Source of the DNA: a virus
Length of the DNA stretch: 36,028 nucleotides
IMG/VR virus record: IMGVR_UViG_3300008261_000066
Coordinates: 1-36,028 of that record
Direction: 5' to 3' (one strand)
Part shown: one piece after another, positions 803-4,969 of the stretch
Numbering within the stretch: the stretch's first letter is position 1
Layout: every line of letters starts with the position of its first letter
Position numbers and translations under genes: made by a program
Notes under the pieces: generated by a model
The model's database searches: none
What the model was told of the DNA's origin: nothing
Seen by the model: the letters and a program-made list of their open reading frames with translations, nothing else

Positions 803-1062
803 TGCCTTTTACTACAAACGGTAAACGAGATTACAAAAAAGAGCTCTCCTGGGAAAAGACATCAAAACCTGGCAGAGTTAAAGATAGAGCTAAACGTAAC
901 TCAGCAAGAAAAGCAGTTGGTCTTAAAGTTGGTGATAGTAGACAAGTAGATCATAAGCGCCCACTAAAGAGTGGGGGTAGTAACAAGAAAACAAACCTAC
1001 GTGTTGTATCTGCAAAAACAAATTTAACAAAAGAAGCAATGAGGAAAAAACGCAATGGCTAA
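802..1062 (+). CDS. small HNH-like nuclease-fold protein
   Basis: Basic protein of 86 residues. Its second half carries VDHKRPLKSGG followed by N-K-K-T-N-L-R and a later N, matching the core of the HNH (beta-beta-alpha metal) nuclease fold: Asp-His, then the Asn of the loop. The last metal ligand, often His, appears to be Asn, so activity is uncertain. Small HNH proteins often sit beside terminase genes, and some (HK97 gp74 type) help packaging; others are free-standing homing nucleases. The location next to the small terminase favours the packaging reading, but this is inference. Confidence 0.6.
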   Translation: MPFTTNGKRDYKKELSWEKTSKPGRVKDRAKRNSARKAVGLKVGDSRQVDHKRPLKSGGSNKKTNLRVVSAKTNLTKEAMRKKRNG

Positions 1063-1384
1063 AATTAGCATATCAAATTTAAGTTCTGGTTTTAATAGTA
1101 CCACTACGCTTAATAACGCGTTTGACACTATTGAAACAGAATTAAACAATAAAGTTTTATATCGAGATAATCCAGCTGGTGAACCTAACCAAATGGAACA
1201 AGATCTTGATATGAATGGATTCAAGATCCTCAATGCAGGTGATGTTGAAGTAGATGGTGTTAATATTATTGCACAAATGCAAACAATATATGATGACTAT
1301 CTTGCGTTAGTTGATCGTGTAACAATTAGTACCAGTTCGCCTACAGGTGGTTCTGATGGTGATATCTGGTTCAAAGTAACTTAA
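1055..1384 (+). CDS. short tail fibre base-like protein
   Basis: Protein of 109 residues. The central NQMEQDLDMNGFKILNAGD stretch (about residues 47-65) is a motif common in N-terminal, virion-anchoring parts of T7-like tail fibres. The C-terminus ends in a GDIWFKV-type motif also frequent at phage fibre ends. It overlaps the HNH-like gene by 8 bases, with GAGG at 1041-1044 as a possible ribosome site. There is no receptor-binding region, so it is best read as an adaptor or fibre-base subunit used with the fibre genes downstream. Confidence 0.6.
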   Translation: MAKISISNLSSGFNSTTTLNNAFDTIETELNNKVLYRDNPAGEPNQMEQDLDMNGFKILNAGDVEVDGVNIIAQMQTIYDDYLALVDRVTISTSSPTGGSDGDIWFKVT

Positions 1385-1401: not shown

Positions 1402-1794
1402 ATGGCAGCTTTATCAGACTACGCAGAGAAGTTATTACTTGACTGGGCAATGACTACAGGTTCTGCAACACGACCAACAGCATGGTACGTGGCATTATAC
1501 ACAGCAGCTCCATCTGATTCAGGTGGTGGTACAGAAGTTTCAACAGGTGGTTATGCACGTCAAGCAGTTACATTTGCAGCGGCTACATCACCAGGTGGTA
1601 CAACATCTAACACAGGTGCAGTTTCATTTACTGCTTCTGGTGCTAACTATGGTACTGTAACACACATCGGTATTTTTGATGCACTCACAACTGGTAACCT
1701 TTTATGGCACGGTTCTATGACTGCTTCTAAAACAGTTAATGATGGTGATACACTTGAGTTTTCAATCGGCAATATTGACTTAACACTAGCTTAA
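1402..1794 (+). CDS. tail or virion structural protein
   Basis: Protein of 130 residues, rich in Gly, Thr, Ala and Ser, with the WYVALYTAAP segment near residue 28 and a GGYARQ motif near 50. I recognise this pattern from small phage tail-fibre-type structural proteins. Beta structure is likely throughout. It has a clear AGGAG site at 1391-1395. Codon choice (many CGT, GGT, GCT) looks more like the capsid gene than the AT-rich genes right after it, which suggests high expression. Exact position in the virion is unknown. Confidence 0.6.
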   Translation: MAALSDYAEKLLLDWAMTTGSATRPTAWYVALYTAAPSDSGGGTEVSTGGYARQAVTFAAATSPGGTTSNTGAVSFTASGANYGTVTHIGIFDALTTGNLLWHGSMTASKTVNDGDTLEFSIGNIDLTLA

Positions 1795-1796
1795 TC

Positions 1797-2672
1797 ATGC
1801 CAGATGGCTTTCGTATCCTCGAGAATGGGGACTATAGATTAACGGAAGCCAATGTCTTTCGGATTACTGAACGCTTTGATGAAGGGTTTAGTGATCACAG
1901 TGGTAGTGGTAGTTTAGCAGTAACTGGGTTATTAAACCAAAAAGCTTTTTTTGATATTAGTAGCGAAGGAATCTTTTCAGCTACACCAGTTTTAAAAGCT
2001 ACTGGAGCAATAAATTTAACTGGTAATGGATCTATAGCAGTAATAGGTGGACTAAAACAAATTGGTTTATCTAATTTAACAAGTACTGGAAGTTTAAGTG
2101 TAGTATCAGTAGTAGTTAAAAAAGCAGAGTCTTCTTTAACTAGTACTGGAGCACTAAGTGTAATTGGCACTGGAAAATTAAAAGGACTTGCAGACCTACA
2201 ATTAATTGGTACACATTTATTTGCAGGTGATCGTAAAATTGGTCACAGCCATAACTTTGAAGCCTCTAGTACAGTAGCTGCTATACCTGATGTAAAAGCA
2301 TATAGATCTAGTAATCTTACTTCTAGCTCTAATATAACTATTTCAGGTCAAGTAACAAGGTTTGGACTAAGTGCACTAACTGCTACAGGAACTCTTGTTA
2401 ATCAAGGGTTAAACATAAAATTTGGAAATGCTGCATTGTCAGCTACAGGATCTTTAAGTGCTGATTCAGATCTAATAGCAAAAGGTTTAAGTGCATTAAC
2501 AGGAACAGGTACTCTAGCAGCAGAAGGAACTAGAATAGCTTTCTCTTCTACTCTTTACGTTAACGATACTACTTGGAAAGTAACGACTCCTTATGTTAAA
2601 CATAATGGATCTTGGAAAACTCCAGATTACATTTATGTTAAAGTAAGTGGTGCTTGGACTAGGGTTTACTAA
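1797..2672 (+). CDS. modular repeat virion protein, 11-repeat paralogue
   Basis: Protein of 291 residues with three visible modules. Residues 5-28 hold three 8-residue units built on an xRITE pattern. Residues 34-253 are eleven consecutive 20-residue units without insertions, each starting near L-T-x-x-G-x-L. Residues 254-291 hold three short units ending in Trp (TW, SW, AW) spaced by YVK. The repeat suggests a beta-solenoid or trimeric fibre shaft. The next gene has the same ends with a single 20-residue unit. It sits in the fibre block, overlapping the next gene as TAATG. Probably a tail fibre component; the role is inferred from composition and location. Confidence 0.6.
   Translation: MPDGFRILENGDYRLTEANVFRITERFDEGFSDHSGSGSLAVTGLLNQKAFFDISSEGIFSATPVLKATGAINLTGNGSIAVIGGLKQIGLSNLTSTGSLSVVSVVVKKAESSLTSTGALSVIGTGKLKGLADLQLIGTHLFAGDRKIGHSHNFEASSTVAAIPDVKAYRSSNLTSSSNITISGQVTRFGLSALTATGTLVNQGLNIKFGNAALSATGSLSADSDLIAKGLSALTGTGTLAAEGTRIAFSSTLYVNDTTWKVTTPYVKHNGSWKTPDYIYVKVSGAWTRVY
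1896..2555 (+). repeat. eleven tandem 60-bp (20-residue) coding repeats
   Basis: Reading the encoded protein in blocks of 20 from residue 34 gives eleven units in register, with no insertion or deletion, ending at residue 253. The consensus is L-T-[ST]-[TS]-G-[ST]-L-x-V at positions 1-9, a variable middle, and a small residue plus Leu or Ala near positions 17-20. DNA identity between units is low, so the array is old and kept at protein level. Confidence 0.8.
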
Positions 2673-2974
2673 TGCCTTTAATTCAATATGCACAATTTGA
2701 AGCAATATCAGAAGAGTTAACTCGTATTACTGAAGCTAGTGATACTCGTATAACAGAAGCTGGTGACATACGAATAACTAATGAAACGGCAGGTAATACA
2801 GTTGTAGGTTCACTAGTAGCTAATCCTACATTAATACCTCTATCTTCTGAGCCTTATGTTAAAGTTAGTGGAGTCTGGAAATTATTTGTTCCTTATGTAA
2901 AGTACAATGGATCATGGCAACAACCGAATGCAATATATAAAAAAATAAGTGGAAACTGGAAAAGGATATACTAA
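2672..2974 (+). CDS. modular virion protein, 1-repeat paralogue
   Basis: Protein of 100 residues. Residues 17-40 are three 8-residue TRITEASD-like units. Residues 42-61 align with the last 20-residue unit of the preceding gene product (shared T, G, L, A, T, I, S, S positions). Residues 62-100 carry three YVK...W units ending WKRIY, matching the WTRVY end of the larger protein. So it looks like a short version of its neighbour with one shaft repeat. It overlaps that gene by one base (TAATG) and ends right before the large fibre gene. Probably part of the same fibre assembly; function is inferred. Confidence 0.6.
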   Translation: MPLIQYAQFEAISEELTRITEASDTRITEAGDIRITNETAGNTVVGSLVANPTLIPLSSEPYVKVSGVWKLFVPYVKYNGSWQQPNAIYKKISGNWKRIY

Positions 2975-4969
2975 ATGGCAAATGTAAAAATATCAGGTTT
3001 AACCTCCGCAGCAGCAGCAGCTGCAGCAAATGAGTTTGAAATTAATGAAGCAGGTACTTCTAAAAAAGTAACTGGGGCTCAAATAGCAACTTATGTAGGA
3101 ACAACTCTTGATGGAGATAAAGGTGATATTACAGTAAGTGGTTCCGGAGCAACATGGACAGTAGATGCTTTAGCAATTACATCTGGTAAACTTGCAGCAG
3201 GAGCTGCTACATTAGCTAAATTAGATACAACAGGGGCACTTGGAAAAGTTCTAACTGCTCAAGGGTCAGGAGTAGCCCCTACTTGGGAATCATCAAGTGC
3301 TGGAAGGTCAGATGCTTCTTATGTTACTTTAACAACAGGAACACTTAACGTAACTTTAACTTCAGCAAGCAATCAATTACAAGTTATTTCAGCAGATCAA
3401 GAGGGTTGTTCAGTTACATTACCTGACATGACTACTTTAACAAAAGGATCAGGATATTTTTATTTTTATAATACTTCATTATTTTCTATTGCAGTTAAAG
3501 ACGCTGGTGGAACTATTAGGGAGTATTTACAACCATGTCAAAATTTAGGAAGTGCACCTACTCAAATACCATCATTACCTTTAAATATTGAAGATATATC
3601 TTCTGCCAATGGTGTTTGGCATATTCAAGATTCTGTAAGTGCTGGATCATACAACACTAATACTAGTGGAGTATTTACTGCTTACACTCTTCCAGGCACA
3701 GCATATTTATACCAAACTTATTGCATTATTAATAGCACTCAATTTTTAATTGCATATGCTTCGAGTATAGGTGGAAATGCAGGAATTCCATATCTTCAAT
3801 TAGTAACAATTGATACATCAACAAAAGCGCTTACTTTTGCAACCCCTGTTTCACTAGGTAGTGTAGGAAGTCTAAATAGAATACAAGGAATAAATATTGA
3901 TTCTAATGGATCAGATCGTGGATTAGTATCTGTCATAACAGATCAATTCCAAAGTAACACTGCTGCAACAGGAACCAGGCATTATGGATGGGCTGTTGTA
4001 TCAAACGTCTTATATGTTTCAACATCTCAATTTGGTCCAAGCTTTAGTGATGGCATGGGGTCTACAACTGCGGGTAGTTTCTGTCAATATTCAGGATCAA
4101 GCAATTGGTTTATTTCTTGTAGCGGGAAAGCTGGAACATTAGGCACCAACTACTATGCGTATGCATATCAAGTTAATGTTGCTTCAACAACTGTTACACT
4201 TGCTACTGCAACAGGAAATGGTGCTAATCGAGCTTCTGCGGGAGGATCTGGCACTTATTACAATGTTTCTCCTACAAGTCAAACTACTTTTGTAGCGGAA
4301 ACTAACTCAGGAACTAACCCATCATTTATTAACTTTAATACAGGAACAAATACTATATCAGTAGGCGCTAGAACATCGCAAACAACTCCAATAGCTAATA
4401 CTTTAATTCCTATGATAACTAGCGGTCAAGGAAGAAATTTAATTTTAATGAATTCTTCGGGTTCAAAAATGTTATATGGGGTACCCAGTGAAGTAGCTTA
4501 TTCAACTACAAATGGTGGTTATTGCGTTGCGGTAGCTAATACAGGAACTGCTACTGTAACTGTATCTTTTACAACGGCTACTTATAAAAACTTTGCATCC
4601 AAAAATTATGCAACCATACAAAATAAAGGGCGTGTTGGTAATACTGTTTCAGCACTACCTAATATTCTTAGCTCATATACTGTTTCTGCAAGTAGTGTAT
4701 GGTTTGTAGGCGACAACTCTACTATCATTAATGCTGATCCTACAAATGCAAGCTACAACATGAATTATGAACATTTTAATGTAAGTGTTGGTTCAAGGAG
4801 ATCATCAGAAAATAGTCTTGTTTTAACACCAGTAACTCTTTATTTATGGAATAGTGCAACCACATTAGCTTGTGTATATTTAGACCTAAGCAGTACAACA
4901 ACAAACTATCTTACATTTAATGGTGGCTTTTGCTCTGTTTATAGTTTACCAACACCATTTGTTTCTTAA
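2975..4969 (+). CDS. tail fibre / receptor-binding protein
   Basis: Protein of 664 residues. The N-terminal 110 residues carry a poly-Ala run and a DKGDITVSGSG...W segment with TSGKLAAGAATLAKL and GKVLTAQGSG motifs, typical of fibre N-terminal regions in aquatic phages. The rest is rich in Ser, Thr, Gly and Tyr, with loosely repeating blocks of about 50-60 residues that could form propeller or beta-sandwich blades. It is the largest protein in the fibre block and the best candidate for host binding. No enzyme motif was seen. The adjoining small gene may be its partner. Confidence 0.7.
   Translation: MANVKISGLTSAAAAAAANEFEINEAGTSKKVTGAQIATYVGTTLDGDKGDITVSGSGATWTVDALAITSGKLAAGAATLAKLDTTGALGKVLTAQGSGVAPTWESSSAGRSDASYVTLTTGTLNVTLTSASNQLQVISADQEGCSVTLPDMTTLTKGSGYFYFYNTSLFSIAVKDAGGTIREYLQPCQNLGSAPTQIPSLPLNIEDISSANGVWHIQDSVSAGSYNTNTSGVFTAYTLPGTAYLYQTYCIINSTQFLIAYASSIGGNAGIPYLQLVTIDTSTKALTFATPVSLGSVGSLNRIQGINIDSNGSDRGLVSVITDQFQSNTAATGTRHYGWAVVSNVLYVSTSQFGPSFSDGMGSTTAGSFCQYSGSSNWFISCSGKAGTLGTNYYAYAYQVNVASTTVTLATATGNGANRASAGGSGTYYNVSPTSQTTFVAETNSGTNPSFINFNTGTNTISVGARTSQTTPIANTLIPMITSGQGRNLILMNSSGSKMLYGVPSEVAYSTTNGGYCVAVANTGTATVTVSFTTATYKNFASKNYATIQNKGRVGNTVSALPNILSSYTVSASSVWFVGDNSTIINADPTNASYNMNYEHFNVSVGSRRSSENSLVLTPVTLYLWNSATTLACVYLDLSSTTTNYLTFNGGFCSVYSLPTPFVS

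What the first reader, a model, noticed from the sequence alone, without database searches (positions are those of the whole stretch)
1797..2974. Adjacent paralogues with 11 versus 1 copy of the same shaft repeat
Both proteins have three 8-residue xRITE units at the start and three Trp-ended YVK units at the end. Between them, the first has eleven 20-residue units and the second a single unit (residues 42-61) that aligns with the last unit of the first. This looks like one modular fibre protein present as a long and a short form side by side, perhaps used together or as an adjustable ruler.
Basis: partly seen in the sequence, partly recalled or inferred. Interest (0 to 1): 0.75.

Follow-up and report, generated by a model that had tools for sequence, protein, structure and literature searches.

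The report
Bead-and-rope phage fibre, split gene
Two side-by-side genes of a marine phage probably encode a long 'rope' protein and its separate end-piece, the rope being one that strings bead proteins into a chain-like fibre, and the number of 20-residue repeats may set how many beads the fibre carries.

Summary
P1 (1797-2672) and P2 (2672-2974) share three RITE units and a three-Trp end block (BLASTP 2e-17). P1 has eleven 20-residue units and P2 has one. The interpretation needs changing. P2 is not a short form of P1: in relatives (CRP-4, CRP-5, many contigs) a single protein reads RITE3 - n units - RITE3 - 1 unit - W3, and P2 matches its C-terminal cap while P1 matches the rest. One contig (L094) shows the split without the extra W3 on P1. 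The context is the stronger result. The preceding gene (1402-1794) is a homologue of gp80, the dimeric bead of fibre I in podophage GP4 (PF23140, 2.4e-45; PDB 8jou). In 81 of 94 other gp80-type loci the very next gene encodes a period-20 repeat protein, against 3 of about 630 other ORFs. GP4's own next gene has about 11 such units, and 8jou holds 10 gp80 chains. I therefore read P1 as the rope of a bead-chain fibre, about one unit per bead, and P2 as its detached end-cap. The rope role, the 1:1 rule and the P1-P2 contact are inferred, not shown. Novelty: new variant of a known kind.

The parts
1402..1794 (+). gp80-type bead protein (130 aa), homologue of GP4 fibre I protein gp80
   Evidence: Pfam PF23140 E=2.4e-45; PDB 8jou_a E=1.4e-12 over residues 1-125; present in all 42 cap-bearing loci examined
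1797..2672 (+). P1, rope protein (291 aa)
   Evidence: 11 repeat units; present in MEP401/402 and many contigs; purifying selection dN/dS about 0.41
1812..1883 (+). P1 three 8-residue RITE units (residues 6-29)
   Evidence: near-invariant in alignment A2; dN/dS 0.27
1893..2552 (+). P1 eleven 20-residue units (residues 33-252)
   Evidence: autocorrelation at lag 20 and 40; most diverged part, dN/dS 0.44
2553..2669 (+). P1 W3 block, three Trp-ended YVK units (residues 253-291)
   Evidence: most conserved part, dN/dS 0.19
2672..2974 (+). P2, end-cap protein (100 aa); start codon overlaps P1 stop (TAATG)
2723..2794 (+). P2 three RITE units (residues 18-41)
2795..2854 (+).
2855..2971 (+). P2 W3 block (residues 62-100)
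2975..4969 (+). downstream tail fibre gene (664 aa) with the MANVKISGL...GTSKKVTG N-terminal segment seen in relatives; ATG follows the P2 stop directly
   Evidence: no Pfam match, context only
1055..1384 (+). 109-aa protein upstream of the bead gene with tail-fibre-type N-terminal matches
   Evidence: phrog_17462 3.6e-18, phrog_17587 (tail fiber protein) 8e-8

Best explanation
The genes 1402-1794, 1797-2672 and 2672-2974 form a bead-and-rope fibre module of the GP4 fibre I kind. The 130-aa protein is the bead. P1 is the rope: a conserved N-terminal RITE block, eleven 20-residue units that each probably dock one bead subunit, and a conserved Trp-rich C-terminal end. P2 is the C-terminal cap of the same rope made as a separate protein. 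In relatives the cap is fused to the rope, so P1 and P2 most likely act together in one fibre, P2 closing or anchoring one end. Repeat number would then fix bead number, about 10-11 here. Shown: homology, repeats, fused, split and two-gene forms, linkage of bead and period-20 genes, selection on both genes. Inferred: bead-unit docking, the 1:1 ratio, P1-P2 contact, presence in the virion.
For: Bead homology to GP4 gp80: PF23140 2.4e-45, 8jou_a 1.4e-12. The gene right after the bead has period 20 (z>6) in 81 of 94 further loci, against 3 of about 630 other ORFs (many loci are close relatives, 24 non-redundant ropes). The same in unrelated phages: DC1 gp54 and MW202462, Slicko01 myophage, mycobacteriophages Faith1 gp24 and Akoma gp33. 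GP4 or an identical contig (L230): the 325-aa gene after gp80 has period 20 above every one of 300 shuffles over the repeat region, about 11 units by eye, while 8jou holds 10 gp80 chains and 3 adaptor chains. Rope lengths cluster at 196, 216, 276 and 296, that is, whole units; window 291 against MEP401 271. Fused form in CRP-4, CRP-5 and at least 14 contigs, split form in L094, two-gene form in MEP401/402 and about 20 contigs. P1 and P2 abut in the two-gene loci checked. Papers: 8JOU_g is a dimeric fibril protein linking an adhesin to the tail collar (PMC13243795). The words 'five dimers of gp80 linked by an elongated rope protein' are from my memory of the GP4 abstract (J Mol Biol 2023), which was not held.
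Against: Proteomics found the bead and adaptor in JC1 virions but not the rope homologue gp54 (PMC9144972); in phiM5 the bead is flagged as detected and the next gene is not. AlphaFold models of P2 and P1 are poor (pLDDT 47 and 42). The window has no recognisable homologue of the GP4 adaptor 8jou_D. In phiCbK and some contigs a bead gene has no period-20 neighbour. A dimer-parity signal (lag 40 above lag 20) was not found (13 of 24). In the two-gene form P1 carries its own W3, which a pure split would not need.
Confidence: 0.6

Rival explanations
1. Long and short forms used in parallel: P1 makes a long bead chain and P2 a one-bead short fibre at separate sites, as the first reader suggested in general terms.
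For: In the two-gene form each protein has its own RITE start and W3 end; both are under purifying selection; from memory, GP4 carries two kinds of fibre on one collar.
Against: In one-gene relatives the P2 module is the C-terminus of the same chain; L094 has a P1-type protein without W3 next to a cap, which can hardly work alone if W3 is the anchor.
Confidence: 0.2
2. P1 is an ordinary trimeric fibre shaft (beta-repeat shaft with head and tail domains) unrelated to the gp80 bead; the neighbourhood is chance or shared operon only.
For: The repeat has two predicted strands per unit (low confidence) and weakly resembles the repeat of a putative lipoprotein of known structure, 3jx8 E=1.6e-4.
Against: The linkage of bead gene and period-20 gene holds across podo-, sipho- and myophages that share little else.
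Confidence: 0.15
3. P2 is a decaying or assembly-only by-product of a duplication in the rope gene, with no role in the virion.
For: It is small, and no proteomics was found for this clade (the MEP401 paper has none).
Against: P2 dN/dS 0.23 and 91% identity in its C-terminal part among relatives whose P1 repeats are 70% identical; the cap module is present in the relatives with this rope type.
Confidence: 0.05

Closest known systems
Fibre I of Ralstonia podophage GP4 (gp80 bead chain, PDB 8jou, Pfam PF23140)
   Same: Homologous bead protein; next gene encodes a 20-residue-repeat protein of similar length with about 11 units
   Different: No homologue of the 8jou_D adaptor in the window; the GP4 protein has no RITE or YVK-W blocks; the window has a second gene, P2, close to where GP4 has its adaptor gene
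Extra structural module gp34-gp36 of Alishewanella phage LSH1 and its relative Slicko01 (PMC13243795)
   Same: gp80-type fibril protein near a protein with a long region that could not be modelled; in Slicko01 that region is a period-20 repeat of roughly 700-800 residues
   Different: Sits behind a large N-terminal enzyme-like payload; no RITE or W3 blocks seen; order of genes differs
Rope-cap proteins of Roseobacter phages CRP-4 gp54, CRP-5 gp55 and Methylophilales phages MEP401/402 (Zobellviridae)
   Same: Same RITE, unit and W3 modules in the same gene position after the bead gene
   Different: CRP-4 and CRP-5 have a single fused gene; MEP401/402 have the two-gene form with 10 units
Bead-chain neck fibre of Anabaena myophage A-1(L) (gp80-gp82, PMC10966104)
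   Same: Bead chain, five fibres on a 15-subunit ring
   Different: Built of stacked trimers joined head to tail, no rope protein; the gp80 name is a coincidence of numbering and homology was not tested

Membership tests
GP4-type bead-and-rope fibre I | Bead protein homologous to gp80 (PF23140) | tested here: met
   PF23140 2.4e-45, cut-off 27 bits, score 154; 8jou_a 1.4e-12
GP4-type bead-and-rope fibre I | Adjacent gene for an elongated repeat protein with period 20 | tested here: met
   P1 period 20; the GP4 equivalent has the same period
GP4-type bead-and-rope fibre I | Repeat protein is the rope seen in the fibre density | not testable with these tools
   No rope chain found in the PDB sequence set with relatives' ropes; the paper was not held
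GP4-type bead-and-rope fibre I | Fibre-tail adaptor of the 8jou_D family encoded nearby | tested here: not met
   HMM of five adaptors finds GP4 and Faith1 controls at 1e-38 or better, nothing in the window below E=2
GP4-type bead-and-rope fibre I | Beads dimerise and form a chain of five dimers in the virion | not testable with these tools
   Needs a structure or microscopy
Zobellviridae rope-cap family (CRP-4 gp54, MEP401 gp59/gp58) | RITE3, n units, then RITE3, one unit, W3, in one or two genes, directly after the bead gene | tested here: met
Trimeric tail fibre shaft | Homology to a known trimeric fibre or a confident trimeric repeat fold | tested here: inconclusive
   No Pfam family above cut-off; monomer models only and of low confidence

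The most novel reading that the evidence does not exclude
Rope repeat number is a genetic ruler: one 20-residue unit holds one bead subunit, so the number of beads and the length of these fibres can be read from the genome in podo-, sipho- and myophages alike, and the two-gene form lets the end-cap evolve or be exchanged separately from the ruler.
Probability: 0.4. Interest if true: 0.78.

Novelty: new variant of a known kind. Interest (0 to 1): 0.62.

Why it matters
As far as I know this bead-chain fibre has been solved in one phage only, and a 2026 paper lists the unmodelled region beside its bead-type protein as unexplained. The period-20 rope family offers an explanation for that region, gives annotators a way to recognise these fibres in hundreds of genomes where both proteins are called hypothetical or 'head protein', and makes a length-ruler idea directly testable by changing repeat number. 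The fused, split and two-gene forms show how a fibre protein can be cut into parts.

Tried and rejected
(2) Sequencing frameshift splitting one gene in L094: judged unlikely, because P1 there ends at its own stop and the cap has its own ATG directly after, as in the two-gene loci. (3) Two units per bead dimer shown by alternating units: lag 40 exceeds the mean of lags 20 and 60 in only 13 of 24 non-redundant ropes. (4) Dating the split with trees: the W3 tree has too few columns, and the bead-gene tree needs 2 changes for the two-gene form and does not reject a single origin, p-AU 0.31. (5) Gene conversion between P1 and P2: identity within genomes 0.47 against 0.46 between genomes, so no sign of it. 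(6) AlphaFold on P2 alone and on a P1 alignment: too poor to search with. (7) PDB sequence searches for the rope: nothing; 3jx8 is a weak repeat resemblance only. (8) GTDB genomes for the adaptor: nothing.

Full report
WHAT THE WINDOW IS. The window is a 36,028-base viral record of a podovirus. Its bead gene is closest to the isolates Methylophilales phages MEP401 and MEP402 (83% and 82% identity) and Roseobacter phages CRP-4 and CRP-5, all Zobellviridae.

THE OBSERVATION. P1 (1797-2672, 291 aa) and P2 (2672-2974, 100 aa) share both ends. P2 matches the last unit and the W block of P1 with 50% identity over 58 residues, E=2e-17, and the RITE block with E=2e-4; shuffled sequences do not reach the block scores. 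P1 residues 33-252 repeat with period 20 (eleven units) far above shuffles.

P2 IS THE CAP OF A ONE-GENE PROTEIN. Relatives come in three forms. One gene: RITE3 - n units - RITE3 - one unit - W3 (CRP-4 gp54, CRP-5 gp55, contigs L012-L020, L055, L057, L064, L067, L071, L074, L077, L080, L082, L083). Two genes: RITE3 - n units - W3, then RITE3 - one unit - W3 (window, MEP401/402, L002-L011, L021, L052, L056, L062, L070, L075, L086-L093 apart from L091 (a copy of L021) and L092). Split: RITE3 - n units without W3, then a cap with a W-type end (L094). P2 aligns along its whole length with the C-terminus of the one-gene proteins, including the segment before the RITE block (IQYGQFES against VHFGKLSS) and an invariant Asn at the start of the single unit that P1's last unit lacks. 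P1 resembles their N-terminus and repeats. The pair is thus two parts of one protein, with an extra W3 on P1, not a long and a short isoform. Which form is ancestral is not settled: trees are too weak. Proteins fused in relatives usually touch when separate (established principle), so an end-to-end contact of P1 and P2 is the best guess. The genes abut or overlap in the two-gene loci checked (TAATG, TAAATG, TAGATG, ATGA; a few bases apart in MEP401), which suggests coupled translation.

BOTH GENES ARE KEPT. Among five close relatives dN/dS is about 0.41 for P1 (repeats 0.44, RITE 0.27, W3 0.19) and 0.23 for P2. The ends are constrained and the repeats drift, as expected if the ends bind fixed partners.

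THE NEIGHBOUR GIVES THE FUNCTION. The gene just before P1 (1402-1794) is a homologue of GP4 gp80 (PF23140 E=2.4e-45; 8jou_a E=1.4e-12). A 2026 paper describes 8JOU_g as a dimeric fibril protein linking an adhesin to the tail collar (PMC13243795). From memory, not checked here because the paper was not held, the GP4 abstract says fibre I is five gp80 dimers linked by an elongated rope protein. All 42 cap-bearing loci examined have the bead gene, and where I compared coordinates it lies directly upstream; of 43 loci with only RITE repeats one has it.

THE LINK BETWEEN BEAD AND PERIOD-20 PROTEIN IS GENERAL. I collected bead loci from other phages (94 scored) and scored all ORFs of 100 aa or more for period 20. 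The gene right after the bead scored z>6 in 81 of 94; among about 630 other ORFs three did. Many loci are close kin (24 non-redundant ropes in the pooled set), so 81 is not 81 independent events, but the pattern recurs in unrelated phages: Burkholderia DC1 gp54 and spring metagenome phage MW202462, the Slicko01 myophage (about residues 1000-1750 of WGH49683), and mycobacteriophages Faith1 (gp24, after the bead) and Akoma (gp33, before it), both with a Gly-rich domain. Most of these freshwater ropes share the same plan: a short N-terminal segment, n units, and a Trp-repeat C-terminus. Rope lengths cluster at 196, 216, 276 and 296, whole units apart; the window's 291 and MEP401's 271 also differ by one unit.

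COUNTING AGAINST GP4. Contig L230 carries the 8jou_D adaptor at 100% identity and is GP4 or a near-identical phage. Its bead gene is followed by a 325-aa protein with period 20 in residues 15-250 (0.23 against a 300-shuffle maximum of 0.05). By eye it has about 11 units. The PDB entry holds 10 gp80 chains and 3 chains of the adaptor, which fits one fifth of a fivefold structure with a 15-subunit collar. Ten beads and about eleven units suggest roughly one unit per bead. This is a numerical coincidence until the density is inspected.

WHAT IS NOT SHOWN. I found no report of P1 or P2 in a virion. In JC1 the bead and adaptor were found by mass spectrometry, the rope homologue was not (PMC9144972); few copies could explain that. 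AlphaFold monomer models were poor. The window lacks a recognisable 8jou_D adaptor; P2 lies close to where that gene sits in GP4-type phages, and whether it replaces the adaptor is open. RITE and W3 functions are unknown; their conservation suggests interfaces.

BEARING ON AN OPEN QUESTION. The LSH1 paper could not explain why its gp34-type proteins carry long stretches that AlphaFold models badly, and asked whether a repetitive motif is the reason. In Slicko01, which that paper names as carrying gp34-like domains, the C-terminal region of the large protein encoded two genes before the bead is a clear period-20/40 repeat. LSH1 itself was not available, so this is tested on its relative only.

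VERDICT. Observation confirmed; interpretation partly supported. Best reading: rope (P1) and detached cap (P2) of a bead-chain fibre of GP4 type; new variant of a known kind, with a testable ruler rule.

Noticed in passing
L226:5935-6327 (phiCbK gp072): Caulobacter phage phiCbK gp072 is a PF23140 bead-type protein (E=1.7e-16) close to the head genes and to gp76, the proposed but unproven head-filament protein (PMC3556154). No period-20 neighbour was found, but a bead-type protein in a phage with an unidentified head filament deserves a look.
   Followed up: partly
window 1402-1794 and homologues: PHROG 240 labels this family 'head protein' and many records carry that label, although the only solved member I know is a fibre I protein of the tail.
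   Followed up: no
L014, L017, L019, L062 N-termini: Some rope proteins carry extra N-terminal domains of about 190 residues or more before the RITE block or repeats, without a Pfam match; they look like payload domains at the far end of the rope.
   Followed up: partly
L022-L039, L095-L119: RITE 8-residue repeats also occur, nearly always without a bead gene, in large tail proteins of unrelated phages, some resembling tail-tip J proteins, so the RITE block is a widely shared small module.
   Followed up: no
L228:3323-4114 (Arthrobacter phage Phaby gene 31): The W3-type YVK-Trp block also ends minor tail proteins of actinophages (phrog_6977); its role there was not studied.
   Followed up: no
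L019:3007-6294: A 1095-aa single-gene form has a long repetitive N-terminal part before the rope repeats and cap, the largest fusion seen in this family.
   Followed up: no
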